The notes beneath the pieces are model-generated. The model did not search any database. It was not told where the DNA came from and saw nothing but the letters and a program-made list of their open reading frames with translations. This document shows positions 1-63,310 of a stretch of 64,000 nucleotides of DNA, piece by piece. Where the stretch lies: contig BCGQ01000006.1 of the NCBI GenBank assembly GCA_001599355.1, forward strand, positions 796,877 to 860,876, read 5' to 3'. This stretch comes from Nakazawaea peltata. Lineage: Eukaryota > Ascomycota > Pichiomycetes > Alaninales > Pachysolenaceae. Each line of letters begins with the position of its first letter. Position 1 is the stretch's first letter. Made by a program: the position numbers and the translations under genes.

Positions 1-1524
1 TAACAAAAGGTATCGAAATTTAGAATTCAGAAAACATATGGTGAAATTGTTACAACTATCTTCGTCTCCCTCACTCCTTCTCCCGTTCGCTGACAATGTT
101 GGTGCTATCTTCTCGAAATTCTCAGTTGGCAACGAAGTATCAAACTCTGATATTCTTATTTGAGAAGAGAGTTTCTGATAATGAGACACAAAATTGTCCA
201 ACTTGAAGATCTGCCACCAAAGTAACCTTTTACATTGGATACTTACCCTGTCAGTAGAATTAGGTCCATGAATTACTGGGTCATGATCAAATCTGAAAAA
301 CTGGGCAGCCCTTATCAACTTGGAGACTTCCAAGATATTCTCATTGAGTGTCAAATTACTGAACCAAAGTACAAGTATCTTCACCTGGAAAGAAACTAGT
401 ATCAAAGACTCTTCCTCTTTTAGTCTGAGATTATTTAAATCGTCGATCTTTAATAGTTCATGTAAAATATCAAATTGGTTCCTGAAGCGACTGGCTTCGA
501 TCACCAAATCAATAGGAGTTGGGCAGCTCAGTTGCTGTTTAAGAGCCACCAGTGACAGATATAATATCAGTGTATATAGAAACAAAAACTCATATAATGA
601 ATCAATGGAATCGAAATTCTCAAAATCCTGTGTCTGTAAGTACAAACTCCTGACATTGGACAGTAGGTTGAGTCCTTGCAGCCAAAACAGATCATAATTC
701 ACCTTGAAAGTGCAAATATCAACTAATGGAAGTATGATATTCACCGAGTTCACAAAAACCAATAGGTAATGATCGGAGCACTCTTTTGAAGGAAGGGCCA
801 GTACTGTCGACTCCATTGTACCGACTATATTTGGTAGACCACTCTTAGATGTGTGGATCTCTATTGAGGTATGAGGCGAGGATACAGACCTTGCATCTTT
901 GAAAGACTCTATATACATATAATCTGGAGAATGATTCTCATGAGATTCAGACTGTGATCTCACTCCATCTTGAGAGCTGAGATGATTTTCTGTATTTATC
1001 TCAATGTCTGGAATGATATAGTTTGACGGTGTCTCATGCTCCTCATCTTCTTTATCCTCATCTTCATCTTCATCTTCATCTTCATCTTCATCTTCACTCT
1101 CAACTTCACCTTCACTTTCATCTTCTCCGTCGCTTTCATTTTCACCTTCGCTTTCACTTTCATCTACACTTTCTGGTATACTGAGCTCCTTTAGTATTGA
1201 CCTGTTCCCATATTCTTCCATCTCTCCTTTCAGCGCCTGGTTTCCTTTGTCAAATACACGAACCTGTACTTCGGTGCTGTCCTCTGCCTCCCTCTTCTTC
1301 TTCAAATTACTCAATTTATCATTTATAAAATATTGACAAGGTAAGTTATTCCTCAAACAATGTTCACAAATCACTCCTCTACTACACTTTATCTTCCTCT
1401 GATGACAGGGAATACAACTTAAAATCCTCCTTTGCCTCACCTTCTGGATCTTATATACATTTCCATCATCCAATACTAAGGATTTCTTTTTCAACGTCTT
1501 ATTTAGCACAACTTGTCCTGTCAT
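1..1524 (-). CDS. Zn2Cys6 fungal transcription factor, 3' end outside window
   Basis: The frame is open from an ATG at 1524 to the left edge, giving the first 508 codons of a protein whose C-terminus lies outside the window. Cysteines at residues 37, 40, 47, 53, 56 and 63 follow the CX2CX6CX5CX2CX6C pattern of the fungal binuclear zinc cluster, with basic residues in the first loop (HQRKIK). A proline just before the last Cys is typical. Around residues 115-165 is an almost purely Glu/Asp/Ser tract built on a GAT/GAA hexamer repeat. The rest is weakly conserved and resembles the middle region of this family, but I cannot name the regulator. It lies downstream of the MFS transporter on the same strand, 478 bp away. 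This arrangement often means that the factor controls its neighbour; here that is only an inference. Confidence 0.88.
   Translation of the reverse strand, partial: MTGQVVLNKTLKKKSLVLDDGNVYKIQKVRQRRILSCIPCHQRKIKCSRGVICEHCLRNNLPCQYFINDKLSNLKKKREAEDSTEVQVRVFDKGNQALKGEMEEYGNRSILKELSIPESVDESESEGENESDGEDESEGEVESEDEDEDEDEDEDEDKEDEEHETPSNYIIPDIEINTENHLSSQDGVRSQSESHENHSPDYMYIESFKDARSVSSPHTSIEIHTSKSGLPNIVGTMESTVLALPSKECSDHYLLVFVNSVNIILPLVDICTFKVNYDLFWLQGLNLLSNVRSLYLQTQDFENFDSIDSLYEFLFLYTLILYLSLVALKQQLSCPTPIDLVIEASRFRNQFDILHELLKIDDLNNLRLKEEESLILVSFQVKILVLWFSNLTLNENILEVSKLIRAAQFFRFDHDPVIHGPNSTDRVSIQCKRLLWWQIFKLDNFVSHYQKLSSQIRISEFDTSLPTENFEKIAPTLSANGRRSEGDEDSCNNFTICFLNSKFRYLLL
1060..1095. repeat. ATCTTC hexanucleotide repeat inside the zinc-cluster gene
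   Basis: Six tandem copies of ATCTTC, read on the minus strand as GAAGAT, encode an acidic Glu/Asp run. Such in-frame hexamer repeats can vary in copy number between strains without breaking the gene. Confidence 0.8.
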
Positions 1525-2002: not shown

Positions 2003-3902
2003 TTAATTTGAAAGTGCAGATTGTGGTACGGACTGTGGTACAGATTGTGGCGCCGACTGTGGTGCAGACTGTGATGCAAGAGGTTGAGAATATTTATCTT
2101 CTTCGGTATCATCCTCTGGTGCTTCATCACTATCCAGACTATCTTCCTTCTCACCTTTCGGAGGATCCAACTCATCAATACAACGCAATCCGTGATCTTT
2201 GAGGAAAATAGTTAAGATCAAAGACACAGCCATATATGGGAACCACATATAGAAGATGTTTTTGATCAGATAGGTATAGTACCATTTGACAGTATCGATC
2301 TCGTCGGCTGGGAGAGTGGACAAATCAATTTTGGAGTAAAGGTTGTCCTTAATGGTCAGAATAGTAGCAGCTGAAAGCTTGGTGTCGTTGTTCAATTTAT
2401 TCAACAAAGTGTTGGAATAAATCAAAGAACAAATGGCTAAACCAAGGGCACCTCCAAGCGAACGCAAAACGTTTCTGGTCGAAATGACAACTGCTCTGTC
2501 TGCTACCTTGGCATGACTTTGCAGGGCCACCATTGTTGGTTGGAAAATACCACCATTTCCAGCTCCGATGATCAATAAACAAATCACACACACCAGAGGA
2601 TGGGTGTAAGGAGTCCACATCAACAAAAGACCAGTACCCAAAGTTGTCAAACAGTATGCAATTCTTACTACATGGATATAGTGACCTGTTCTCGAAATAA
2701 TTTGACCACTGATAACACTGAATGTCAGTTGGGTCATTAAAATCAGCATCGTATAACACGACAGGATCACCGGTGAATCTCCACGAACAATTTCAAAATA
2801 ATATGAGAAGAAATATGGCATGCCAAAGAATGTTCCACCAAAGAACAACGATTGTACAAATATGATATCAAGAGAGTAGGATTTGAAGAGACGAAGAGGG
2901 ATCATTGGAAGACGGGAAACCTTCCATTCGACAAACACAAAGATGATGAGACAAAGACCTCCCACGATGAACATGGAGATGACAAGTGGACTATCCCACA
3001 GGTAGGTGTTACCTCCACTATTGATAGGGATGAGGAAGAGAATGATACCTGCAGTGGAAAAAAAGAAGCCGATGAAATCAATGTTCTTAATCTTCTCTCT
3101 CTTGGAAATTGGAGATTTGGATCCAGGGACGATCTTGTAGACGATCAGAGCACCTACTAATAAGAAAGGTGTTAAAGTATGATAGAAATTACGCCAACTG
3201 GAATGCATGATGAAACCAGCGCAGATGAAGGGACCTAAACTATTTCCCAAGCCTACAAAACTACCCAAGATACCTTGGTATTTTCCTCTATCTTTCAAAG
3301 TGGTGATATCGGAAGTGATGACCATGGTCAAATTCTGAACACCTCCTTGACCGACACCACAGAAGGCTCTAAAAATGTAAAACATGACACCGTTGACAGA
3401 GAATCCACAAACGAGATCAGACAACAGCAAAACGATCAATGCCCCGATAAGTGTACTTTTACGTCCAAAGATATCGGAGAATCTTCCGAACATGACCTGA
3501 AAGACGGTATTAGCAATCAAATTAGCGGTGCCTCGCCCAAGATATTGTTCGCTGCAGGTTCAAAGACTCGGCAATAGAGGGCAACAGAATAGTGACACCA
3601 CTCTGGTCGGTGAAACTAAAGAAGATCAGCATAGCCATACCCAAGAAGACAGTAATCAACTTCTTACCCGTAAGACGGTTGATATGAGCCTCACTCAACT
3701 TCTCCTCAAGTGGTTTGGATATGTGCTTCTGAAGGGAAGGATGTTCGGATTGGACTGATACCAGCAGCAGCATCTCGATATCGACATCTCCGTTGTATGG
3801 CAGTGGAGTCAGGCCCTCAAGCTGGACGGGCAGGGGCAGCAGGGCAGATTCGATAGAATGCTCGGAGCTCCCCGACAGAGATTGAATAGAATGTACAGAC
3901 AT
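2003..3902 (-). CDS. MFS drug/H+ antiporter-like transporter, needs a +1 frameshift
   Basis: Major facilitator of the 14-helix DHA2 type. The first part (ATG at 3902, about 123 codons) holds a cytosolic N-terminus and the first helix with the family's FTDQSGVTI..LPSI region. The second part (3532 to 2003, 509 codons) holds helix 2 onward, including motif A (GRFSDIFGRK) and the G-rich helix motif near LGPFICAG. The two parts are in different frames and meet exactly at GCG-AGG-C. Skipping one base (3533) gives the expected W-A-G-T-A junction and a 632-residue protein; without it the protein ends after R-H-R. Everything after the junction is intact, which argues against an old pseudogene. The C-tail is acidic, then has SAPQ/SVPQ repeats. 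The substrate is unknown. Alternatives are a single-base sequencing error or a recent null allele. No ATG is found further upstream. Confidence 0.82.
3530..3536 (-). promoter_or_regulatory. Candidate programmed +1 frameshift heptamer GCG-AGG-C
   Basis: On the coding strand the zero-frame codons read TGG GCG AGG CAC CGC TAA. The P-site codon GCG is the one used by Ty3 (GCG-AGU-U). The A-site AGG followed by C is the one used by Ty1 and ABP140 (CUU-AGG-C). Moving +1 places GGC (Gly) in the A site, which restores the transporter. The zero-frame stop comes three codons later. Confidence 0.6.
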
Positions 3903-13787: not shown

Positions 13788-14291
13788 TTAGAAGTCGGTA
13801 ACTCTACCGTTGAAGGACCAATCACCGTGTCTTAAAGGTTCCTGTTTAGGACCTCCTACTTCTCCAGTATTAGGGTTAGTGTCACCTTCGAATTCTGGGA
13901 TGGTCTTGAAGTAAGCAGGGGTGAATCCTCCAATATCATCAGCTGGAACTTGCCCCAGAGCCTCTTTCTCCAAAATATTCGGATCGGAATTGGTCGAAGA
14001 ATTAGCAACCGATGCGTTATATTCGTCTATGGCGGACTGAGAGTTGGCGATTCTTTGCAATCTTTCGAACTCCAGTTGCTCTTCATCAGGTAACTTTGGA
14101 GGTCCTGATTGTTGAGCCATGAAGGGGTTTCCGCCCTTTCCGCCATTACTTGGAGGGAACGACATGGCGTTGAAAGATTTCTTACCGCTGTCGTTGGAGG
14201 CGAGAAGCAAAGAGGAGCTGAAATTTCTAATTCCACCGATCTTTGCCACTCTGAAGTTATTAGATAACCTAACTAATTGTCTGGACATCAT
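13788..14291 (-). CDS. SDH8: Succinate dehydrogenase assembly factor 4
   Basis: A 167-residue mitochondrial protein. The first ~35 residues are a basic, Ser-rich presequence without acids. The C-terminus carries the SDHAF4 signature: Gly-Gly-Pro-Lys, then EPLRHGDWSFNGRVTDF ending the protein, where GDW and RVTDF are nearly invariant. SDHAF4 binds flavinylated Sdh1 in the matrix and protects it until it joins Sdh2. The middle is a Gly/Asn/Ser-rich linker longer than in other species. Tandem ATGs at 14291 and 14288 are both usable. It converges on NUP82 (101 bp between stops) and is divergent from LAS21. In S. cerevisiae it is YBR269C, next to MRPL37. Confidence 0.93.
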   Translation of the reverse strand: MMSRQLVRLSNNFRVAKIGGIRNFSSSLLLASNDSGKKSFNAMSFPPSNGGKGGNPFMAQQSGPPKLPDEEQLEFERLQRIANSQSAIDEYNASVANSSTNSDPNILEKEALGQVPADDIGGFTPAYFKTIPEFEGDTNPNTGEVGGPKQEPLRHGDWSFNGRVTDF

Positions 14292-21443: not shown

Positions 21444-22254
21444 TCCTGAACTAATCCTCTTAAACACAGGACTTTTTACTCTTATGTTTCTCTCTCTTGA
21501 ACTGCCTTAGAAAAAGATCTGCTTAAAAAAAAACTCCAAAAAAATTTTTTATCATGACAATTTGTAGAATGCTCAGATGAGATGGGCCTGAAGAAGCGAG
21601 GGGGGTTCATTGGTGAAGACAGTTGGTGGGTATTATAAAAGAAAGCAGGGCTGAATTGAGGTATCACTAACCTTGTTGGCATATTTAATGGAACTATGAT
21701 ATATTTCGAGCCAATAGAGAGAATACAAATCCATAATAAGTTTGGTTAGAACAACAATCTAATGTTATGATGCTTTCTAAGATAATTTTAATCTTTGATT
21801 TATATAAGATATATACTCAGAACATTAAGATGAATAGTAAACATATTAACATAAACTGAATAACAAGATGAAGATTCTGTGCAAAACCTCTTAGTTGTTT
21901 TCTGAGCCATTATTTAGGCTTTATTGGGGAATTCTATGCCCTGGAAAGCTTGAATTTTCAGATTTGACTCAGATTTTTGATTCTCGCTAAAGAAAAACAT
22001 GCACCCCTTTAATCTTTAGCTGCCTCTTACCTTCCCTAGAAATTTCAGGCTTAAAAAAATAGAAGCCTAAAGCGCTGAATCAGACCACAAATATTACTTT
22101 GAGAGAGTGAAGTGGTATCCACGACACTGTTAGGGGTCACGATAAAGTATAGAGAAGATGGAAGTTACTACTATAGTACTCTATATTCCTAACGATGCGC
22201 TAAGTGTTTCTAAGGAGCGAAAACGATGGTCAGCAAAAAAAAAAAAAATTAAAA
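21444..22254. other. Intergenic: RRP6 promoter to tRNA
   Basis: AT-rich. No gene is seen. A T-run on the minus strand just past the tRNA (plus-strand A-run around 22235-22250) can serve as the RNA polymerase III terminator. Confidence 0.6.
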
Positions 22255-22326
22255 CTCCGAAACGGGGAATTGAACCCCGATTGTCGCGATGAGAACGCGA
22301 AGTGATAGCCATTACACTATTTCGGA
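22255..22326 (-). tRNA. tRNA-Glu(CTC)
   Basis: The minus strand folds as a complete 72-nt cloverleaf without intron. The acceptor stem TCCGAAA pairs with TTTCGGA, the anticodon stem TCGCG pairs with CGCGA around the loop TTCTCAT (anticodon CTC, codon GAG), and the T arm is CGGGG-TTCAATT-CCCCG. A and B box sequences are present. The sequence closely resembles S. cerevisiae tRNA-Glu(CTC). A T-rich stretch follows. It stands alone in the gene-free region next to RRP6; tRNA genes are often found near yeast centromeres and attract LTR elements. Confidence 0.95.
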
Positions 22327-25300
22327 TTAACTTGTATGCTTTTTACATACATAAATATATGAGCTTAGTAGGGATTTTGACAGATAAAACCTGCGAGAAT
22401 TTGATGTTCTTGTTGTAACGGCTGGATTGGTCAAACAAACACCTTCATTAAATCTTTCTCAGTGTTCCATATTTTTCAATGACAGTAGAGAACTAACTGA
22501 ATTGAATCTTTGATCTTATGACAATGTACTTGCTAGACCCCCATATATATGTATCCAGCAAAATAATAGATCCACTAATCCTCAAGTACCCCAACCCGGA
22601 CATATACATACATAGTCTATAGCAGTTATATTTATATCACACAATCTCAGTGAAAATCAAAAGGGCAGGATATGCAGTAATGATCTGACCCTCGTTGCAA
22701 CAACAGATGCTGTTCAGGGTTGGTAGAATTCATTAGCTAATGGTGTACCTTTAGTCAATAGCAAAAAGCACATTACGAATTAAATAATCTGAGAGAACAA
22801 AAAAAAAGGTAAAATAAAATCAAAAAACGCAGGCCACACCTGCGAGAGAAAAAAAAAATGGTGTCTCCACATCTTTTTACAATTACGTACATAATAAAAC
22901 AATCTGAACTCAAGGCTTCTTGCTAATAATTAAGCACAGACCTTAAACTTCTAATACCCTAAGCAATCTCATGGAGTCCATCAGAATCAAGCACAGGGTG
23001 AAACGGAGCAATAGAGCTTTTAGTGACAAACAAAACTTTTCGAAACAGAATTTTTCATTATGGCAGACATAAAGACGTAGTAATATGATGATCCATCTGT
23101 AATTAATACCTCTGCTGGTCCTGTGAAAGCTGAACCCACTCCAGCGGCCACATCTTTGCCCCAAACATAAGAGATAACTAACAAACAAGACTTTGACAGC
23201 ACCTAGTCAGCATTTTGGTCGCCCTTTCCCTTCATCTTAGAGGAAAAGTCCTGTATAATAGTAATTGATGGCATGATCTGTCCTAGATGAACCACAATGT
23301 GATAAACATACGATTAGATGATGTTTGGTGCCTTCACAGCCTACACCCAAATGCTCTCCAGGAAGAACTTTCCAGATAACCTCCTGGCTTTAACCTAACA
23401 CAACGATTTCGAGCTATTGAGGCTTTAAAGTTTCGCACTAATGAAATCAAAGACTCACAACCACAAACTAAGAATCTTTTCATCAAAAACGGCGCTCATT
23501 CATCTAATTAGCTGTCGGCAGGGAGCAAAGCCCGTCACGATGAAGTAAAGTAGACGAAGCTGGAAGGATGTAGTATACTTAAGCCCCTGCCATGTAGTAA
23601 AACGATTAATTTTGGTAAAATAGAAGATAACGTACCAAGAAAATATAATAAACACGGATTTTTGGCTAATATTAACTTGTATATACCAAGTTGATAAACT
23701 AAAAGGCTTCGCAGACTGATACTCTTTGGCAACAGCTAAGCTGATCCCTCTATAGTACATCTTTAGCACCGTACCTACTGACTGATACTTTATTAGAAGC
23801 AATTAGACAAATTCATACATATCGCAAGAAGAAAAGAAGAAAAAAAGATACAATTAATTAACAAATCGACGTACAACTGCTGTTAGATCCTCGCGTGGAG
23901 GCTACATTGGTAAACAGACCCAATGAAGAGGGTCTAGTTGTATAACATCGTCTGGCACTATTGTAGCTTGCCAATTGATTCAAATCCAGTTATTCCTTTT
24001 CGAAGATGGTCATTATTTTGAAAAAACTTTAAATGACAGATCGATAAATTATATATACCGGATCAGAACTTCTTGGTCCTCAGTTAACACGCAAGAAGTC
24101 TTCCACGTCATTAACTGCGATAATAAGGTATTAAAGAATAGATGAGGGTGTTTCAGAGCTATGTCTTGTCCTATGTCGCACGATTTGTTGTGTTTATGAG
24201 TATAGGTTTGCATGTATTTGGAATATCTTAATGTTTGTTTGTGAAATGTAACGTAGAATGTCTTAATACGTCTCTAGCACGTTCTTCACAGAAGGATAAA
24301 CGTGCCATCAATCAGAACAATTTGTATTGAATCATTACAGGCCTGGCTGAGACTAGTTTTATCGATAAGATAGATATTTATTTGGAGTATTTAACCTATA
24401 TGGATCAAAATATTTTAATTAGACTCTTGTTTGACGCAGGCTGATACGCTAATGTCAGTTGAGCGGTGATATGATGGCGGTGGCAGCCATAAGTTTGATA
24501 GTTTGGGTGTTACACTTCTGTAGACAAATAAGCTTTAGTATACTCTATTGCAGTGATTGCTAGGCGGTGTCTCATCACGATTGAGGAGATTATTTTGAAT
24601 TCACCGTACCTAATTGTAGTTTTCCAGTGAGTTTGAGGCGTAATGGATGCTTAGTGGTGCAAGAGAAGCCTAAATTAAGAATTGGGGCGCTTTTGTGAAT
24701 GAGCGTCAAAGATATTGAACTATCCAACATGAAGGCCTTTTTATTTGGAGCATTTTGAAGGTTTTAAGACCATGTAGCGAAGCTTTGTCTTGCATTACCT
24801 ATGCTTCGTATAGCCCTGCCCTTTTGAACGGTATTAGCTTCTTTTATCTATGTATTTCTCTGCGCTTTGTAAGTTGCTGCTAGTAAGGCTTTGATTTACT
24901 CTCATATCTGGACTGGAAACTCAATCCCGGTATTTAGAAAGCCTTCCATCATAGCTTTATTTATATGTAGAAGAGGAATGAATCTCCTCCCAGTGTAAAT
25001 TGTTTGGTGACTTTTCCCAGAGATGCCTCCAAGGGCCATCAATACTAGTACCACCTATCACTTCCTCTCACAATGAGCATTTCTGCTGGAACTACTCAAT
25101 GGCAAAGCGCGTGGAGCTGCTGTCTTAAATCTAAATAAGACAGATCTTTCAGGGCCTCTCAGCTAGTAGTGAATGTAACCTACGACGACCACTAGAGGGT
25201 TGGAGCTTCCATAGTAACCCCCGAGGAGATAACTTAGCGGTTCTGGTTAAGTCAGTGACTCATGCCGTAGCCCCAAAGTTGAGTTTCTCGGAACATGTAC

Positions 25301-26291
25301 AACAGAAGCCACTTGTACACAGACAAGGCTAACATAGAGGCATATAACGATCAACAGTATCTATAGCTTGACCGTTTAAAGCATTTTGTGAAGTGTCAAT
25401 GCTAAACAACACTACTATTAGAAGAAGGGGTAGAAGGGGTAGAAGGGGGGTGTTTGCAGAATAAAATAAGACTTGAGCTTGGCATACTACAAGTTCCGGA
25501 AATCACACCCTTAGCACCAGCGATATTTGAATATTTGAATGTTTGAATACCCATCAAGATTTCTGCTAGTGTTCTCTGATATACATGCTACTACTTTTTA
25601 AGTTGACAACCCCCCTTCTCAGCACCCTTTTCGGATTTTTTATTTTCGTAATTTGCTAAATATCAGAAGAAATGGTTTAAGGGATGGATCGTAAGCTACA
25701 TGTTCGAAGAGGCATCATCAAGATTCAGCCTACTACTAGCAGAGTTTGATCATTTATAATCAAATGTAGAAGTGACATGGTATTAAATTCAGACAACTGG
25801 TATTATCCCAAGTTTGCCATTGAATTAGCTTTATTATTATCTAAGGAGTAGAATGAATATTCTATATTGAAAATTTCTAGATAGTATTGTGACCTTGAAA
25901 TTTAAAACATATATAAGTTATTTAAATGAAAAAAGGTAGGATTATGATTGAGGTAAAAGAACTAGGACATACCTTGCCTTATGGAACAAATCATTGAGTC
26001 TTTGTTTTCAGATAACGTAAGGCCTAGTAAACCAAAAAAGTAGTAAGCCGTGGTCTAGTTGTTGACTCTATGGTGATGGCTAAATATCTTACTGCGCAGA
26101 GAGGGAATATCACCATTTCACCCCCCAGCATCATTTGGAAAAAAAAAAAATGGGAATAAAAAAAACAGCAGTCCTGGAGTAAGAGAGATTGAGAAAATAA
26201 ATCTACAAATGGAATGAAAATGACTCTAGGCTAAGGGAAAGTATATCAGAATTAATATAGTACATTAAGGGGTGAATACACAGGAGCTAAT
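22327..26291. other. Gene-free stretch, candidate centromere region
   Basis: About 4 kb without a credible coding gene: the longest open frames are 60-100 codons, overlap one another and match nothing. It sits between RRP6 and SWC4, whose S. cerevisiae orthologs are the first and second genes from CEN15 and CEN7. I looked for a point centromere (CDEI/CDEIII) and for large inverted repeats and saw neither by eye. It also holds a possible LTR-like element at 22408-22705 and a small hairpin CGCAGG-CCACA-CCTGCG near 22829-22845. A non-coding RNA gene cannot be excluded. Confidence 0.45.
22408..22705. mobile_element. Possible solo LTR or small inverted-repeat element
   Basis: A 298-bp segment with 13-base imperfect inverted ends: TCTTGTTGTAACG at 22408-22420 and the complement of TGTTGTTGCAACG at 22693-22705 (11 of 13 match). 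It is flanked by GATGT (22403-22407) and GATGC (22706-22710), which could be a decayed 5-bp target duplication. It lies 82 bp upstream of the tRNA gene, where Ty1- and Ty3-like elements insert. The inner sequence has no coding capacity. This could still be chance; no second copy is in the window. Confidence 0.35.
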
Positions 26292-33528: not shown

Positions 33529-35785
33529 TCATTCCTTGATTAAAAGGTCAGTATGATCACCGTTATTCTCAATAACGAATCCATTCTCATTAGCCAAATG
33601 AAGAAGACAAATGAAACAAAAACTTGTCGACAAGTCATTCTTCAGCTCGGGTGTATATTTGGTAGATATATCTTGAATAAGATCTGTGAATTTAAATAGA
33701 GTTTTATCTTGTGTATCAGATTCGATTTCAGTGTCCTGATTGTCTTTATCTTTATCTTGTCCGATCTCTTCTATCTTCTCTTCATTTTCTTTCTCCATTT
33801 CTACAATATCATTTTCAGATACCAGAATTCTTCCTCTGATACTATTAAAGGAATCCCACAAATTGTCTTTTAATAATCTGACATCGACTCTTTTGGCAAC
33901 ACGAGCGAAATTGATTGTATTCGGCTGGAATCTTGAGAGTGTTTGCATGACCCCGGCGATTATTCCCCCATTTCCTGTAGACACAGGGCCAATTGCACTT
34001 CCATTACCCATCTCATCACCGAAACTCAGTCCTCCAGGACCAAATGCATCTCCGAATGATTGATGGATCTCCAGAAGGTCATTCTCCAACACAGCATCCA
34101 AACGTTTATTACGCCACAGCTCTGGTGAGTTCTCCATTTCATTTTTCTTGGCAGCTTCAGCAGCTGCATATTGCGTAGCATAGAAATTCTCGTCGATTCT
34201 CGAAGGATGTTCCTCGGTTCCAAATGTTGTCTTTCTAGAGCTGAACAATGCTGTGCTAATCAATTTGCGAGGTTTCAATGAGAGATAGATGAAATTTTTA
34301 GTAGTAAATTGTTGATCCTCAGGTAAAAGATTGTAAGATTCCGATTTCCAAAGTGATTTCGATTGGACAAGATTCTTTTTGGATCTCTTGAAGATCTCCT
34401 CATCAGGTAAGTAATCCAGATCTGAAAGAAAATCAATAATGAGCTCCTCATTCTGACGAGGTCTTCTTTTGGTAGTATTCACAGCTGAAGATGCAGCTGT
34501 TGAAGAAGGTGCAGGTGTTCCAGAAGCCGAATCCGGTTCACTAGCAACACCACCAGCCACCGTAGCTGCATCTTCTTGTCCCTTCAAATATTTCCTCAAA
34601 TTAGCTATTTTCCAATTCTCAGGACCAGCCCAAGATCTCATCTGTGTCACTACTCCATCAAAATATCCCATTAATGATAAATCCGGTTCATTGGAGTTCC
34701 TCAATAATGATTTCTCCAGGGAGTTATCATTGAAAAGCAGGAGCATCGTCTTATTTGGACCTTCATTGGAAACATTGTCCTCTCTATACATTGCCGAAAT
34801 ATCAAACATTTGAGTATTCCCTATTAAATCATCCTGCGCAGCGTCATCACCCCCCATATCGAAAAGATCTGCTCCTCCCCCAATATCAAAATCACCGGCT
34901 TCATCCTGCGCAGCCCCAGTGTCAAATGCAAATGGCTCCAGATTTTGAAGTTGTTCTAATATGTCTGCCAGAGAGTTACCTGATCCTGATCCAATCTGTT
35001 CAAGAGATTTCATGGATGGACACACTACAACATCATCGGTGGTGAAATTGAGCAAATTTCGTATTTGCCCCAAATTTATAACCCGATTTTTATGAGACTC
35101 AGGTTCTACGGGGTCTTGGTCCTTCTCTTGATTGTCTTTATCAGTCTGCGCAGCGGCTGCCGTATCGAACATGATCCTTCCATTACCATCAATATGAAGC
35201 ATATTCAAAAGGAAACTTTTGGCCCCTCCTTCATCGAATTCTTGTAAAGTTTTTTTAAACACCGGATCCAAGATCAATTGTCCATCTACTTTCTTAGCAC
35301 GGATAAATTTGAAAGATTTCAGTAAGGTGGTGGAACGTCGAAGCAGAGTTCGACTAGCACGGGAGGCCAGGGTTGCCTCACCGGAATCTTCATCTGCATT
35401 ACCTTCGCCATCTTCGCCATCTTCACCTTCTTCTTCATCATCATTATTCCTACTAGATAATCCACTAAGTAATCTACCTACTTCAGTAGCAGCAGAGTCG
35501 ATTCTGGAAGTGTAAATCTTCACACAACCATCTAAGGTGGCCGAGGCTCGCTGGAAATTGATACTATCTCCTTCACGAAGCACTGATAATTCATGAAAAT
35601 AGTCAATTAACGCCACATCCCAACTATTGGAGGCATTGATTTTCTGGTCATCTCTGTTAGTATGGTTATAAAGTGTACGAACCCCCCTAAATATCTAAAA
35701 TACTCACGTTATCAGTAGCTAATTTGATCCAGTTATCGAAATCTTCCTTCGAGGCACTGTTTAATGGTCCATCTATCGCCACCAT
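33529..35785 (-). CDS. BRN1: Condensin kleisin subunit Brn1, one intron
   Basis: Kleisin (barren/CAP-H) that bridges Smc2 and Smc4 in condensin for mitotic chromosome compaction. Exon 1 is 35785-35708 (26 codons, ending NWIKLATDN). The 64-nt intron 35707-35644 has a GTGAGT donor and a TACTAAC branch. Exon 2 is 35643-33529. Across the junction the protein reads KINASNSWDVALIDYFHE, which is the conserved Brn1 block, so the gene model is secure; 730 aa in total. Other conserved parts are GDSINFQRAS and TLDGCVKIYTSRIDS, and the C-terminal winged-helix region before the stop. Acidic linkers are typical. Convergent with LEU1, 94 bp between stops. Confidence 0.95.
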
Positions 35786-41414: not shown

Positions 41415-43115
41415 ATGAATCCTCTGTTTAATGTTGCTGATTTCTTTAATGACTGGGGTTACCAGTTATTGAAGGCTCCTATCCACGGGGACCTTTTCTT
41501 CGCTTACCAGCTCTTTCTGAAGAGTCAGTTTAATTATGATTACAGCTCCCAAGAGCGTTTAGTTGAAAGTTATGAAAAGTTCACAAGCCTTATTGAAAAT
41601 GATGCCATCATTGCGAATGCTTTGGAGTTTGACTCTGAAGGAAAGATCAAATGGATCGATAAATTGAGTCTCTTGTTTTATATGGACCAGATGGAGTCCC
41701 CTTGTGGATCCAATTTTGCGGTTTATAAAGCACCAAAGAGAACTCAAACTTCAAAGTCCGACTTGGAGTCGGAGTTGAAGGAATTCCTCGATTTCAATTG
41801 GGATTTTGACCCATCGGATCGATCTGTTTTCAATTGCACTTCTAAAAAGTATCAGTTTGAAGAAATAAAACAAATATTGAAAGCTCCTAGTGATATGAAT
41901 TCATTAAGGAGGGAGAAATTGAGATATACCACTCCTGTCAAGCCATTTTATAAAATATGTGAAGACCAGAGGCATATTCAGTTAGCGATACACCTGACAC
42001 TATCTCCTGGGATACAAAATCAACAGGTTCTCACTCAGGTTAACCAACAGCCAGCTCAGGTTAATAAGCTATTTTCCTGTTTGTCCAAAAAAATTCACTT
42101 CATTCCTTTGATTAGACTGCAGACAGATTTGAAGCTAGGAGATTGCTCATATTTGGATACCTGTCACAAATATAATACCTGTAGATATCTTCATTATAAG
42201 AGGACAAGTCCTCAGGATTTCGAGAGACAAAATGGATCTCAAGTAAATAAAGAGATCGAAAAATCATTGTTAATAAGTGATTTCACTTTTGGTGAATTTG
42301 TCAGTGAACTCTTATGTCCTCCGATGCCGGCTCAATGGATCAACTGTGATATTCGTAAATTGGATTTCTCTAAATTGGGGAAATTCAGCGCGATAATTGC
42401 TGACCCCCCTTGGAATATACACATGGTTTTGCCCTATGGAACTTGTAATGATTTTGAGTTATTGAATTTACCAATCAGTGAACTTCAAGACGGAGAAGAG
42501 AAGGGAGAAGATGGAGGTGGAATTTTGTTACTTTGGGTAACGGGAAGATCACTCGAAATAGGACGCCAGAGCCTACTCACTTGGGGTTACAAAATAGTCA
42601 ACGAAGTGATCTGGATCAAGACTAACCAATTGTCCAGAACAATTTGTACTGGTAGAACAGGGCATTGGCTCAATCACTCTAAGGAGCATCTTTTGGTTGG
42701 GTGAGTAAAATTAGTATCTTCTGAGGGAAATAAAGACTAACCAATTTCCATTATAGAGTCAAAGGAAATTGTAAATATATATCCAAGGGAATTGATATGG
42801 ATGCGATTGTCTCAATGACAAGAGAAACAAGCAGAAAACCAGATGAAGTAAGTACTCTCACATCCATTTCACGATTTATTCAAATACTAACAACAACCAA
42901 GGTGTATGATATGGTAGAAAGATTGGTCGGTAAAAGAGCCCGTAAATTAGAGATTTTTGGAAGAGATCACAACAGAAGAGAGGGATGGTTAAGTAAGTGC
43001 AAACTTATAGAAATTACAGCAACTTTATACTAACTTCACAAATAAAGCCATCGGAAACCAATTGAGTGGAAATCATATAATCGAAAATGATCTTCTGCGG
43101 AGATATAGAGAATGA
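41415..43115 (+). CDS. IME4: mRNA N6-adenosine methyltransferase Ime4 (METTL3), three introns
   Basis: Catalytic subunit of the m6A writer, needed for meiotic entry. Exons are 41415-42700, 42757-42847, 42902-42992 and 43048-43115; the introns are 56, 54 and 55 nt, all with GT(A/G)AGT donors and CTAAC branch sites. The joined frame gives 511 aa. It contains the Cys-rich [19 protein letters not shown] segment typical of METTL3, the catalytic D330-P-P-W (DPPWNIHM), [11 protein letters not shown] and [19 protein letters not shown]. Across the introns follow [23 protein letters not shown] and [13 protein letters not shown]. Reading into intron 1 gives a stop at once, so unspliced mRNA lacks the end of the catalytic domain. 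In S. cerevisiae it is YGL192W, also next to COX13. Confidence 0.95.
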
Positions 43116-48967: not shown

Positions 48968-50125
48968 ATGAAATCAAAAGTATTATTCCTTGGGGATCTT
49001 AATACAGACCTTCCTGAATATCATCTGTTCAGTGAAAAATTCGAATGCATTGTAAGTAGTTGATTGAACCAGGTACTGAAATGGAGATAAAGAGCTTCGA
49101 CTAACAACTCAAAGGATCATAAGGTGACCACCAGGGAACAAATGATTGAGGATTTCAAGACGAAATTCCATGATATCGAAGCCATCTACGGAGCATGGAT
49201 GCTGTTCCACACAATTGGAGGGTTCAATGGTGATTTGCTTGAGAGTCTGCCTGCTGGGTTGAAGATCTTCACAGTTTGCAGTGCCGGTGTGGATAATTTA
49301 GATGTGAAACTGATGAATTCCCACGGCATTAAGTTGACCAATACTCCACATTTGGGATCTGAACATGTGCTGGATTTGGTTTTGTATGAACTGTTGAGAG
49401 CATTCAGATTCTTCCATTTGTTTGAGAATGAATTGAGAGAACACCACCATACAATTAAGACAAGAGTTCTGTTACAAACCAAGTATCTTGATCCTACTGA
49501 TGGTGTAGTCAAGGAGCAACCAGGAGACCCTGTATCAGCAGGATTTCTGTTCGGACACCGTATCGGTACAGAATTCCCTATAAGGGCTCCATATGGTAAG
49601 ACCCTGACTATCGTCGGGTTCGGTAGAATTGGTAAACTGATTCTGAAGAGATTACAACTGATCGGTATGAACATAAACTATCTTAAGAGACAGAGATTAT
49701 CTGAAGAGGAAGAAAAGACCAATAGATGGACTTTCTTCCCATCTTTGATCGAACTGCTGCCTCATTCCGACTTGGTTGTGATCCTGATCCCTGGTACTCC
49801 AGAGACTTCCAAAATGCTCAACCAAGATGTCATTGATAGATTGCCGTTAGGTTCAAGAATTATCAATATTGGTCGTGGATCTGTCATCGATGAGGAAGCA
49901 GTAATTGCTCTGTTGAAGTCGAAGAAGATCTCATTTTTCCTGTTAGATGTCTTCCCACAAGAACCCGCAGTCAACCCGGAATTACTTAACCGTGACGATG
50001 TCTCTGCTACTCCACATATCGGTAGTGCGACTATGGACAATTATGATCAGAGCGCAATCTACTGTCTTGAAAATATTGAAGCTTGTTTAGAGGGCAGAGA
50101 AGTGCAGAGCGAAATTATCCCATAG
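48968..50125 (+). CDS. 2-hydroxyacid dehydrogenase, YGL185C-like, one intron
   Basis: NAD(P)-dependent D-2-hydroxyacid dehydrogenase. Exon 1 is 48968-49051 (28 codons), the intron is 49052-49114 (63 nt, donor GTAAGT, branch CTAAC, acceptor AAG), and exon 2 is 49115-50125; 364 aa in total. The Rossmann motif is GFGRIGK (about residue 198). Catalytic elements are NIGRGSVID (Arg), LDVFPQEP (Glu) and ATPHIGSAT (His). Three CTG codons in GKxIxKRLQxIGM (49637, 49643, 49658) read as GKAIAKRLQAIGM under CUG=Ala, an almost textbook family sequence. S. cerevisiae YGL185C belongs to this family and lies two genes from COX4, so orthology is likely. The substrate is not known; it also resembles the glyoxylate reductase Gor1. 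Confidence 0.9.
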
Positions 50126-57707: not shown

Positions 57708-60700
57708 ATACCTGATTAATACATATCACATTAGCTTATGGAAGGGATGATTTCTACAAATAAAAAAAGTTCATTTTGCTCTTGTTGGGCGGTCTTCTCC
57801 GCCCCCCCCAGAAAATCGGTTGGAGCTTACCCCTAAAAATGGCCTGTACCCTGTAGGGTTCAGGTCTTTAATGCAATACATTCCTAGATAATCTTCAAAC
57901 TATTCTGTTTATTTTTTGTTCGCACGATCTTAATTACAGGGATCTTTCTCCCTTTTTGAATGATTTTCTGTCTGATTGGCGCTGACTTCGCGAGTCATTT
58001 TATGCAATAAAGTACACTCCGAGGTCGAAACCGTGAGACAGCCCCAAGGCATTCCAGACAGATGGGATGGTTGTATGAACATTCGAAAGGATCTTGCAAA
58101 GTGAATCATCGTCAATAACCCCATCGCTAACGATTCAGCCTCGTCTCACTTTGATGGATGACATGATTCTGCCGCTTATTTAGCCGACAGACATTGGCGC
58201 ACAACTAAATATACCCAATTAGGCTAACGTGCCAGCGTCTACGAAGTTTTTTTTTCTTTTACCGAGAATTCTATGCGCGACGACGAATTGTGTATTAGGC
58301 AGAGGCACAGAATATGACCCCTTTCTGTCAAAGAGAGGAGTTTAGATATAAGGGGGACAAAGGTATGACACGATATTTTGGTGACGAACTGGATGATCAT
58401 CTAAAATACACATACTCGATCTTTCGTGCTAACCCAACGGTAATAGTTTCTGTGGTATCCGAGGATCTCGACAATAACTCGACGCTTTATTTTTGTTCAA
58501 TAGCTTTTACAGTCCGCTGCTCCTCATACTTTTGAAAGGTAAGCTAACTAATTGTCCCCCGGAGTTCTTTCTTTCTTTGCCCTTTGTTTTGGATTTCTCG
58601 GACGTCGTATCTAAAATTTTGTACGACACGCATAAAATAATTTGCCTCAAACCAAATATAGACTTCTTTCAAACAAAAACCAGCAACCCTTCGGTTGCGA
58701 TTCCCTGTTAGACGTGAGGAATCCTCCCAATTCAGCGCGTGGAAATCATTAAACGTATTTAGCGTCTACTAGGTGGTGGTTCTGCCTGCTTTTTTCTACT
58801 CCCGTTTAGGAAGGCTTAAATTCGTATCTGCCCCATAGCACAGCTTTGTACATGTTGCATGCATAGAGACGCGCATGAACAAAAAATATTATTTATGTCT
58901 ATGTTAAAGCGCAAATGCGGTCGAACCCATGCAGTTTTTAAGTTTACGAAATTTTGAAGTTAAAAGAGATTACCGATAGCTGGGGGTTTAGGTAAAAAAG
59001 AGTTGCAAAATGTAATGGGATTTTTGACATGTGGCGGATAAAACGATATACTGTACTTTATATGGTGTGCGCTCTTAGGTTGCTTAATCTTTATGGTATT
59101 CAGAAAAATCATCTTACTGTAGCTCCATCTTGTAATCATCGATAATGTGAAGGGTATCATCTCATCATTGACGTCTATAACATTGTAGTGATCGAAGTCG
59201 AAATTTCATTGGAATTGTCTCGCTCCTTTTCCTCTACTGGGAGTGTCACTTCTGCAATGCATCTCTTTAGTTTTTGGAAAATCTAATTATAATACGCAGC
59301 CTAGTGGGGCATAAGTTAAAAGTTTAAAGTCTAAAGCATAAACTTTAGACTTCCTTTGTTGATATAATGTCAGTAAACAAGACCATAAACAATGCCACTT
59401 ATCATCTCAATAATGAACATTGTTTCCTACTATACTAGAGAATGAGCACAGGAAGAGCTACATCGTAACAAAGGAGTTCGGTAATTGGACCATGTGATTA
59501 ATCACCTCCGGACATTGAATATTTCAAACTATAAATTTAGGCAGAGCAGACGTATTGATACTAGAACTCCTTCAATTAAGGTTATTGGACTCGGGAATGA
59601 ATCGAACTGATTCGCGTCGTTTAGATTGCCAAACAACAACAATCACTTCTATATATAGGAACTTTGGAATCTGTTCTCATGGTCTAGTTACAGAGAGTGA
59701 AATTTACTGAAAGTTGAAAGTAGATCGATCTTTTTCTACGTATTTTTTCTTCATTATAAGGCCCATAAGGGTATTATTACAGTAGATACTATTGTGCAGA
59801 CCCTACAGGTAGACAAAGGTGATTGGCCTCTTGTAGTATTAACAAGGATTACCATGATTAAGGCAAGATCTATTGTAGTTGCTGCTACCATATTTATGTA
59901 AACCTTGGAGATCTCCTAAGATACTTATTAGCTTTAGGATGATCAACTACAATGCATGAGTGCGCACTTAGTACGGTTGAAAAGAAAAGAGCAAACAATA
60001 CATTTGATAAGCGGCACATATGCGAAGAGTCAATCATAGACCGTCTAGAGGCAGTCATCTCTTGTTGCTGGCTTCTATCTTGCAGCTATCATTCCTCCTT
60101 ATTGATTTGAAAGAAAAGGAAAAGGCTAGTTTCTCTTATAGTCCGTCAAGTAATAATCTCACCCAACAAGAGCTATTCAAATTAACAATAGCCAATTCTC
60201 GTTGACTGTAGATTTACATAGGTCTAGTACGTGCCGAACTATAGGCCTACACACACATTGACATGTCCAGCCTCATACCTGGCCCGTCCAAGAAATGTAT
60301 AGTCACTGGTGAAGCTTGAATACTAGAGCAAAATTTTGGAAGGAAAATTAACAAAAACCTAAGATGCAAACAAGACCTAAAGGAAAGAGTTATCTAGGTC
60401 CTTTACAGAACACAATTGAGGTCGTAATTTTCCCGTTCTTCGTAGGCCGCTCCAGCACAAGGATATAGGTTTTCTTTAGCTCACCAATTCTCACAACCAG
60501 CGAAGAACCTGGAATAGCTCTACTCATGTATGGGAACAATAAACAATGCCAATAAAATTTCACCTCGCAGACGCGTACTAAATGCTAATGTCTAGCTCTT
60601 GTTCTGCTAACAATAACCTTATTGTTTGAAGAGTTTCCTCCACCTTCCTTGTGCGCCGACTAAACCTCAGGAAAAATTTCCCCAATTGGACAACAGGGAA

Positions 60701-63310
60701 AAAATCCTCCATACATTTTACTAAGAGGCGCTAATCATATAAAGATCGTCTCCAATGTAAAACTTGATGGACGGTCCTATCCAACTTCAGAATTATATAG
60801 CATAAACGCATACATATGATTGGGATTTTCATACCTGTTTCCAATTTGGGTAGACCACGTACTTGCTTGTTTCAGGTCTAACAGTAGCTCTTTCATTGAC
60901 ATCTAAGGTTTAGCGGTATTCGATTTCGACCATGCTTGCTCTCAAACATTTTTCGGGGTTTTGCGCTTTAACTTTGTGTCCGGTCATAACATATTATTTC
61001 GTTAGTCTGCTTCTCTAATGATATTACGTCCAGGTCAGGGATTTCTCCGTATGCCTATTGTATTTTTTCTCTATACCAATTCGCGTCTAAAAAAGTGTGC
61101 TACATAAAAGAAGGTTTACTTTTTTAAGCGGCGAAGGGCAACTGTGCCCTTTCGTTTCAATCTATGCGTGTTCGGCTAGAATATGCGCATAGGTAACAAT
61201 TAGAGCTGATCGGATAACTCATTTTTCCAGTACTAACTTTTTATGCCTTAGAAGACATCAATTGATGTACAAGAGAGGCTGGTGAACATGTTGAAACTAT
61301 TGCTGCTTCTAATAAGGCACCAAGGATTGTAGGAGGACTCAATGCTCACTATATCAAGCTTGACCTATACTGCTATTTCAGGGTCTTCAAGTCATTAATA
61401 GAGACTGAAAGCTCATTAGTAGATCTGATCTATATCACCCAACTGATGGAGTCTCAAAATACGAGTTGTTGACAAAGCAGTCACTTCATCCAGCTCAAAA
61501 CTCTTGGGCTCTACTTCAAAATGTTCAATTCGCACAATATAGAATGAGCTACGTCGTTTCACGCTAATGTATGCCTCTAAAACGATCGCCCGATGGCCGC
61601 ATTCCAAAAGTGTTATTACTTAAGATCACCTACAGCTTTCCTGTTTGGGATTCTAGATTTCCATAAGGGGTAGTGCTTTGAAGGGATTTACCACTAAAGC
61701 TGAAGTACGATCTAACTTAGATAATATTTCCTCGATATATCCTGGGCAAGTTTGATTTTAGACGAATTTGATATTCAAACTTTGAAGCAATTGCTGGGGC
61801 ACAAAAGTGAGGCTAAATAAGCTGTCGCCAATCGAGATAATGTCTAGTGTAAACAAACGCGAACTCTATTAACAGTGTAAACTTGGTGATAGCAGGAAGA
61901 AGATTTTTTATTGAGGTCCGGCTCCTTTCAATCCAAGGCACAAGAAAACTAAACTATTTAAATACAAACTTTAGTGTAATGTTTCATACATTGAGCAAGA
62001 TAATCTCAATGAGAGCTTTCGAATCTAGCGAGAGTCAAATAATCGGAGAGTGTTTCGTATATGAGACATATTTCATAGTTTGAAGTCTCTTCTCTTTATT
62101 CATAGTTTCTATGCGGTTTGGCTTCTCTGCACTATGGAAGAAACGCAGATGTAATACATTTTGAGAAATTGCATGTAATATTTTTTCTGCCCCCGCTGTT
62201 ACAATTTACGAACACAGGATCGAAACTTTTTTTTACCCTAAAAAGAAACGTAGTTGGACAAGTTTTTAGAGATATTATGAAGAAAAAGTTGATTCCACAT
62301 ACCAGAAAGAGGAATATCTTCATAATAGCAAACAATAGAGCTAAGAATCTGATAAATAACACGCGCCCTTCGGTCAAATTCTTTCATATTATGTGACAAT
62401 AGCCAACGAACCTAAATCTTCCCTTCAATGTTCTTCAGTAGTCATCTTTGTGCTGTCACAAATTTCCGTCTATTTTGCTAAAACTCCCCACACAACAAAC
62501 CGTTAAGAGTGGGTTTCTTTCAGAATCTATCATATTCCTTCCAGTTCTTATGTAATCCAAAATAGGTTAGGTCAAGGGGTAAGCAAAATATTATTGGGGA
62601 CCTGCTTGCAATTTGAGCACTCCTTGCTTTCTCAAGTTCGCCCATCAGTGCAACTAGCAGAAGATCTTTGGGCATGAGCGATCGAGATTTTGTCTTTCGC
62701 GTACTCTCTACCTTAAAAGTCTGTTTCTCAATTGGGGCCTGGATGACAGCGGGTTGAAAGGTGAGTGATAGGAAAAATAATAGGGCTGGGCTGATTGTGG
62801 AAGGGCAGGAATTAACGCTAGACGCACAAAAATGCAGCTGCAGCTGCATGCAAGACTCTTAAAGTCAAACTGCGCATAGAATCCCTGAGGTGCATACATA
62901 GTGATGGCCCAGCTATTGTTTTGCTGTGAGAAGAGCGGATGAGGTATAGACAAGAAAAAAGGGAGAAAACTGAAATATCAATTAGATGATCTTCATTAAA
63001 GTTTAGATACTGCTGTGATGTAGTGATATGCATGCCATGTTGCGTTACATCTCTTGATGTGTCGAGTGCGTCTGCTCCCTTGCCATTTCTTTTTTGCATC
63101 CTTTTTTTCAGTTCTCGAATATATGGGTTCCCTGTCAACTCGCCCCCAAACCTTGAACCACGAATATAAAACTTAAAGGGTTCCCGCATCCTTACTGATT
63201 AGATCTTCTTCCTTCTTTCTTACCATATTGATTTCTTTCTGTTTTTTTTGGAGTAAAACGACTTTAGGTGGTCGGGATCATTTTCAGACTCTCATATAAA
63301 ATCAGAAGAA
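57708..63310. other. 5.6-kb gene-free stretch
   Basis: No reading frame above 92 codons and none with a recognisable domain. Two short hairpins follow WWM1 (57787-57864). A tRNA-like fragment near 59585-59650 does not fold. No repeat, tRNA or telomere motif is recognised. The last part must hold the promoter of the cell-wall gene at 63311. It could contain decayed genes, a long regulatory region as found upstream of FLO-type genes, or a non-coding RNA. Confidence 0.5.
57787..57864. terminator. Two hairpins downstream of WWM1
   Basis: GGGCGG-TCTTCT-CCGCCC (57787-57804) and CCTGTACCCT-GT-AGGGTTCAGG (57843-57864; 9 of 10 pairs), 80-157 bp past the WWM1 stop. Possibly 3'-UTR structure; a terminator role is only a guess. 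Confidence 0.25.

What the first reader, a model, noticed from the sequence alone, without database searches (positions are those of the whole stretch)
3530..3536. Programmed +1 frameshift in an MFS transporter
Two open frames of one transporter meet exactly at GCG-AGG-C, combining the Ty3 P-site codon (GCG) with the Ty1/ABP140 A-site (AGG followed by C). A +1 shift gives the conserved W-A-G-T-A junction; the zero frame stops three codons later. The 509 codons after it are intact. Few cellular +1 frameshift genes are known in yeasts (OAZ1, EST3, ABP140), none to my knowledge a transporter. Frameshifting would set the dose of an efflux pump, and the alternative product is a 126-residue soluble fragment.
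Basis: partly seen in the sequence, partly recalled or inferred. Interest (0 to 1): 0.85.

Follow-up and report, generated by a model that had tools for sequence, protein, structure and literature searches.

The report
One-base frame break in yeast transporter
A membrane-transporter gene in a yeast that appears to read the codon CUG as alanine is split into two overlapping reading frames at a sequence resembling known ribosomal frameshift sites, but the data at hand cannot tell a working frameshift signal from an ordinary one-base mutation or sequencing error.

Summary
On the minus strand, ORF1 (3902-3522, 126 codons) and ORF2 (open from 3559; 509 codons after the junction; end 2003) overlap by 38 nt and meet at TGG GCG AGG CAC CGC TAA. 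Two weak profile matches join the pieces with no residue lost. The first ATG of ORF2 is at 3493, and the gene lacks the splice signals seen in five introns elsewhere in the window.

Corrections: the yeast most likely reads CUG as alanine (Pachysolen/Nakazawaea/Peterozyma clade), and the short product probably ends after the transporter's first helix, so it is not a soluble domain.

Programmed frameshifting is possible but unproven. GCG (P site) and AGG-C (A site) are each known from yeast +1 sites; their combination is not a natural site in the papers I saw. A random one-base insertion gives such a heptamer in about 0.05% (narrow set) to 2% (loosest set) of trials. No RNA structure supports it, no relatives or reads were available, and three of five known +1 genes need no shift in yeasts outside Saccharomycetaceae.

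I favour an unprogrammed one-base lesion, genomic or in the assembly (0.62), over functional frameshifting (0.33). Orthologues and raw reads would settle it.

The parts
3522..3902 (-). ORF1: 126 codons from ATG, N-terminal tail plus the region of the first transmembrane helix of an MFS transporter; ends ARHR-stop
   Evidence: weak matches to OtrB, Tcr3 and SdrM profiles; no Pfam family at E 0.001; at E up to 10 none with the standard code and one with CUG=Ala, an ATP-synthase model at E 0.039, 14 bits, below its cut-off 29.5
2003..3532 (-). ORF2: 509 codons in the +1 frame, the rest of the MFS transporter; first ATG only at 3493
   Evidence: MFS_1 130.0 bits, cut-off 33.4; best NCBIfam model EmrB/DHA2 109.2 bits, below its cut-off 230.2
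3530..3536 (-). Heptamer GCG-AGG-C (zero frame) at the junction; candidate +1 shift site
   Evidence: compared with published sites
3522..3559 (-). 38-nt overlap of the two open frames, the only stretch where a +1 shift can join them

Best explanation
The gene is an MFS transporter gene of a DHA2-like kind that carries a single net one-base frame break just after its first transmembrane region. Most likely the break is not programmed: it is either a recent mutation in the sequenced strain (about 0.35) or an error of the deposited sequence (about 0.27), and its likeness to a +1 shift site is chance. If the break is real, most translation would give the 126-residue fragment and little transporter, with perhaps some leakage into ORF2. 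Shown: the two frames, their overlap, homology on both sides (weak for ORF1), absence of intron signals. Inferred: that the break is not maintained by selection; the split between mutation and error is judgement.
For: The rest of the gene is free of stops, as a recent lesion predicts: without constraint it would stay so with probability 0.05 up to about 4% neutral divergence and 0.5 at about 0.9% (uniform substitutions, no indels). Five overlapping stretches around the site fold no better than shuffles (z 0.42, 0.04, 1.85, 0.49, 1.42). EST3, ABP140 and YFS1 need no frameshifting in yeasts that branched before Saccharomycetaceae (sections read), and this yeast looks like one of the CUG-Ala clade. 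The +1 codon GGC is not a favoured glycine codon here (71 of 745) and AGG is not the rarest arginine codon (CGA 11, CGG 17, CGC 25, AGG 58 of 533). The short product has no evident use. That transporter genes often carry frame-broken alleles in yeasts is recalled, not tested.
Against: Random one-base insertions, judged at the codon with the insertion and the one before it as P site, gave exactly GCGAGGC in 14 of 400,000 trials, one of six natural-type combinations in 186, a broader P-site set in 834 and the loosest set in 8,436: a coincidence of about 1 in 2,000 to 1 in 50. The junction is not in a homopolymer longer than GGG, so a typical base-calling error is not obvious. No second frame lesion was met in the 21 of 25 other ORFs that were compared with a protein library, which argues against a generally poor assembly.
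Confidence: 0.62

Rival explanations
1. Functional +1 ribosomal frameshifting. With peptidyl-tRNA-Ala on GCG in the P site and the infrequent AGG in the A site, some ribosomes accept tRNA-Gly on the +1 codon GGC without P-site re-pairing, as proposed for Ty3 and OAZ1. ORF1-ORF2 then gives the full transporter at a reduced dose. It could be a selected control or a tolerated ('compensatory') shift.
For: Frames meet exactly at a heptamer made of a known P-site codon and a known A-site context. S. cerevisiae heptamer reporters gave about 10% for GCG_A.GU_U and 40% for CUU_A.GG_C, and 11 P-site codons support shifting. ORF2 homology reaches up to the junction with no ATG in the overlap. GCG is the rarest GCN codon (33 of 660) and AGG makes 58 of 533 arginine codons in 25 window ORFs; ORF2 has no AGG. 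A natural-type site at a random insertion has a chance of about 0.05%.
Against: No orthologue, footprint or reporter datum. Shiftiness depends on the tRNA set, unknown here. GCG_AGG_C is not among the natural sites in the papers seen. Published values for GCG sites disagree: a review gives an intrinsic 2% for GCG_AGU_U (passage). No structure near the site. Other heptamers of the broad set stand in frame in intact window ORFs (3 in 12,600 codons), so such a heptamer alone does not mark a shift. No transporter case in yeast appeared in the listing.
Confidence: 0.33
2. An intron spans the junction and splicing joins the frames.
For: This yeast has short introns, read from the sequence without RNA data: three in IME4 and one in the 2-hydroxyacid dehydrogenase gene and one in the condensin subunit gene, each with GTRAGT and CTAAC.
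Against: The gene has no GTAAGT, GTGAGT or GTATGT and no CTAAC in sense. The 13 loose candidates (GTRNGN to YAG, 40-600 nt, right length class) are 388-592 nt long and none has CTAAC or CTAAT in the last 60 nt; each would remove conserved sequence. Two weak profile matches leave no gap at the junction.
Confidence: 0.01
3. Two separate products, with ORF2 translated from its own ATG at 3493.
For: ORF2 has a 496-codon ATG frame.
Against: That product begins at about MFS_1 position 52 of 347 and lacks the first helix region; the stretch between junction and ATG adds 8.6 bits to the MFS_1 match and would be untranslated.
Confidence: 0.04

Closest known systems
Ty3 gag-pol +1 site (GCG_A.GU_U), S. 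cerevisiae
   Different: A-site AGU-U in place of AGG-C; retrotransposon. A review reports a 14-nt 3' stimulator (passage), whereas the 2025 reporter study saw no effect of its natural context, about 10%
Ty1, ABP140, YFS1, LLP1 (CUU_A.GG_C)
   Same: A-site AGG-C with +1 codon GGC
   Different: CUU P site that re-pairs to UUA; conserved in relatives; footprints and reporters exist
OAZ1 antizyme (GCG_U.GA_C)
   Same: GCG P-site codon in a chromosomal yeast gene
   Different: Stop codon in the A site, polyamine control
E. coli copA
   Same: Frameshifting in a transporter gene, short product from the 5' part
   Different: -1 shift, bacterial P-type ATPase, short product a putative chaperone (passage)
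Frame-broken transporter alleles and pseudogenes of yeasts
   Same: One net base, gene otherwise intact
   Different: No particular heptamer expected at the lesion (recalled; not searched)

Membership tests
Programmed +1 frameshift genes of yeasts | Two overlapping frames, ORF2 in +1, joined homology, no start codon for ORF2 in the overlap | tested here: met
   the ORF1 side of the homology is weak
Programmed +1 frameshift genes of yeasts | Shift-prone heptamer at the junction | tested here: inconclusive
   GCG and AGG-C are each known, the combination is not among natural sites seen; chance 0.05% to 2%
Programmed +1 frameshift genes of yeasts | Two-frame arrangement and heptamer conserved in relatives | not testable with these tools
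   no relatives found in one scan each of viral contigs and genome contigs, which do not aim at yeasts; own genome not held
Programmed +1 frameshift genes of yeasts | Footprints or reporter activity across the site | not testable with these tools
   no expression data available
Programmed +1 frameshift genes of yeasts | Near-cognate P-site tRNA and scarce A-site tRNA | not testable with these tools
   one tRNA gene found in the window (Glu); codon usage is only indirect
Major facilitator superfamily | MFS_1 profile above its cut-off | tested here: met
   ORF2 130.0 bits, cut-off 33.4
DHA2 (EmrB-type) transporters | TIGR00711 above its cut-off | tested here: not met
   best NCBIfam hit of ORF2 but 109.2 bits, cut-off 230.2; called DHA2-like only
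CUG-Ala yeast clade | CUG read as alanine | tested here: met
   summed bits Leu 2540.1, Ser 2587.9, Ala 2627.1 over 14 domains, Ala best or tied best in 10 (rows); the transporter's own domains do not favour Ala

The most novel reading that the evidence does not exclude
A lineage of CUG-Ala yeasts expresses a membrane transporter by +1 ribosomal frameshifting at a new natural heptamer, GCG_A.GG_C, by the no-re-pairing mechanism of Ty3 and OAZ1, so that the dose of the transporter depends on the supply of alanine and arginine tRNAs. It would be a transporter case, and a sense-codon +1 case outside Saccharomycetaceae.
Probability: 0.3. Interest if true: 0.75.

Novelty: new member of a known kind. 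Interest (0 to 1): 0.36.

Why it matters
If the site works, it adds an unexpected class of gene to the handful of chromosomal yeast genes that need +1 frameshifting, in a lineage whose alanine tRNAs changed with the genetic code; one could then ask whether that change made GCG or AGG shift-prone. If it is a lesion, it is an ordinary broken transporter allele and a caution: by the loosest definition used here, about 1 in 50 random insertions looks programmed.

Tried and rejected
Rejected: an intron at the junction; a nearby stimulator structure; a generally poor assembly. On the last point: of 25 other ORFs taken as genes (list), 21 were compared with a protein library; those at 13788, 43384, 48088 and 57015 were not. 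One of the 21 had no family (5264) and one only a WW match below its cut-off (55440). Three looked incomplete (IME4, 2-hydroxyacid dehydrogenase, condensin subunit), and each reads as a spliced gene by eye and motif. The Nup88-like ORF matches only part of its profile and was not pursued. Small lesions in poorly conserved parts could have been missed.

Relatives: one scan each of viral contigs and genome contigs with ORF2, six peptide patterns each, gave 38 and 101 pattern matches, none confirmed. A single-protein query reaches close relatives only and these collections hold no yeast genomes by design, so this absence says little. No metagenome scan was allowed; no structure was predicted.

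Literature: a search for the heptamer's letters gave 3 papers, unrelated by title (listing). A search for frameshifting with transporter terms gave 1,267 papers with at least three of four terms; the 12 listed show no frameshifted transporter by title and start of abstract. Papers seen: PMC12661321, abstract, sections 4 and 14, passages; PMC12719033, abstract, start of its introduction, sections 5 and 9; PMC5009743, passages; PMC5951914, passages.

The odds rest on my own rough priors for lesions and for programmed sites per gene, which are judgement. The ten-codon broad P-site set is recalled; the paper says 11 codons.

CUG tally: one row per main domain. Printed best counts are Leu 1 (PMC2NT), Ser 4, Ala 9; one of the four Ser (exonuclease) is a tie with Ala. 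Left out: the transporter's own hits (MFS_1 Leu 121.9, Ser 119.6, Ala 121.4; TRI12 36.1, 32.7, 33.0; also Sugar_tr with Leu only), which slightly favour Leu, and overlapping secondary hits (Metalloenzyme, NAD_binding_2, PK_Tyr_Ser-Thr, KARI_N, F420_oxidored).

Full report
What is there. The gene lies on the minus strand. ORF1 starts with ATG at 3902 and stops at 3522 (126 codons); ORF2 lies in the +1 frame, is open from 3559 and ends at 2003. The frames overlap by 38 nt. In the zero frame the overlap ends TGG GCG AGG CAC CGC TAA; in the +1 frame GGC ACC GCT AAT runs from 3532.

Is it one gene? With CUG as Ala, ORF2 scores 121.4 bits against MFS_1 from its first ATG and 130.0 bits from the junction, so the stretch between them looks coding. 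ORF1 scores nothing above a cut-off in Pfam. In NCBIfam it has three weak MFS hits (E 0.019, 0.078, 0.12). The first two place its end directly before the start of ORF2 on the same models; the third does not give that register. The gapless join thus rests on two weak matches. ORF2 is DHA2-like (EmrB model best, 109.2 bits) but below that model's cut-off of 230.2; TRI12 of Pfam is above its cut-off. The substrate is unknown, and 'efflux pump' is inference.

Which organism? No own genome is held. In the PP2A B-subunit and 3-isopropylmalate dehydratase genes, 15 of 19 CTG codons fall in printed alignments to a solved homologue. Read by eye, 8 of the 15 stand opposite Ala, Ser or Thr, one opposite Leu and six opposite other residues. 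Pfam scores with CTG read as Leu, Ser or Ala sum to 2540.1, 2587.9 and 2627.1 bits over 14 domains (rows); the kinase domain is clearest (116.7, 127.5, 136.0). The transporter's own domains do not favour Ala. This places the yeast most likely in the CUG-Ala clade, which holds Nakazawaea, Peterozyma and Pachysolen (passage of PMC5951914). That these yeasts are not known as pathogens is recalled. The reassigned codon does not touch the heptamer.

Chance. GCGAGGC occurs once in the window, 1.65 expected. No zero-frame copy of it, or of the other five natural-type combinations, stands in 12,600 codon positions of 26 sequences; three members of the broader set do. In 400,000 random single-base insertions into those sequences, judged at the codon with the insertion and the one before it as P site, the exact heptamer appeared in 14, one of six natural-type combinations in 186 (0.05%), a ten-codon P-site set with three A-site contexts in 834 (0.2%), and the loosest set in 8,436 (2.1%). 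The combination was judged after it was seen, so the fair figure lies between the second and the fourth.

Intron or bad assembly? Introns of this yeast were read in IME4 (three), a 2-hydroxyacid dehydrogenase (one) and the condensin subunit gene (one), each GTRAGT...CTAAC...AG; there are no RNA data. The transporter gene has no such 5' splice site and no CTAAC, and 13 loose candidates of suitable length have no branch-site match. Of 25 other ORFs, 21 were compared with a protein library and no second frame lesion was met; four were not compared, and none was aligned to orthologues.

For and against a programmed site. In S. cerevisiae, heptamer-only reporters gave about 40% for CUU_A.GG_C, 15% for CUU_A.GU_U, 10% for GCG_A.GU_U and 3% for GCG_U.GA_C (PMC12661321, section read). 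A review gives other intrinsic values for the GCG sites, 2% for GCG_AGU_U and 37% for GCG_UGA_C (PMC5009743, passage). The Ty3 and OAZ1 heptamers seem to act without re-pairing (passage), and several P-site codons work in AGU-U or AGG-C contexts (introduction read). GCG-AGG-C is thus a plausible site. Against it: five overlapping stretches around the site fold no better than shuffles. Shiftiness of GCG depends on the alanine tRNA set, unknown here. In codon use GCG is the rarest GCN codon (33 of 660), but AGG (58 of 533) is not the rarest arginine codon and GGC (71 of 745) is not a favoured glycine codon. EST3, ABP140 and YFS1 need no frameshifting in yeasts that branched before Saccharomycetaceae (PMC12719033, sections read). 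YFS1 shows what proof looks like: 52 of 81 homologues need the shift, three of them with a variant heptamer.

Weighing. The gene is otherwise free of stops, which fits both readings: without constraint it would be so with probability 0.05 up to about 4% neutral divergence. With rough priors of my own for frame lesions per gene and for unknown programmed +1 genes per genome, the chance figures leave the two readings within a factor of a few of each other. I put the lesion, genomic or in the assembly, at 0.62 and functional frameshifting at 0.33. No relatives were found in the two scans made; that comparison, in yeast genomes, would decide.

Corrections to the finding. The alternative product is probably not a soluble domain: by the weak homology it ends after the first transmembrane region, although the crude hydropathy scan did not flag that region at its threshold. 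The list of known cellular +1 genes in S. cerevisiae has grown to five.

Noticed in passing
window 1-64000: The yeast most likely reads CUG as alanine (NCBI code 26); standard-code translations put Leu at 307 CTG codons of 25 ORFs that would be Ala.
   Followed up: yes
42701-43047 (+): The IME4-like methyltransferase gene seems to continue after the ATG ORF through three short introns with CTAAC branch sites; the ORF list alone makes it look truncated.
   Followed up: partly
48968-50125 (+): A 2-hydroxyacid dehydrogenase gene seems to have a first exon from ATG at 48968 and an intron GTAAGT...GACTAAC...AAAG before the long ORF.
   Followed up: partly
35652-35707 (-): The condensin subunit (Pfam Cnd2) gene seems to have a short intron near its 5' end, 3' splice site at 35654 or 35652; the long frame opens at 35694 and a first exon lies upstream.
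   Followed up: partly
21507-26291 and 57708-62519: Two stretches of about 4.8 kb whose open frames reach at most about 100 codons (not searched for homology). The first holds a tRNA-Glu(CTC) at 22255-22326, the only Rfam match of the window.
   Followed up: no
1-1524 (-): Zn2Cys6 transcription factor gene (Zn_clus 30.1 bits; cut by the window end) downstream of the transporter on the same strand; a possible regulator-transporter pair.
   Followed up: no
3753-3902 (-): The first 150 nt of ORF1 are richer in G+C (0.54) than the rest of the gene in 150-nt steps (0.39-0.45); ORF1 has 12 CTG codons.
   Followed up: partly
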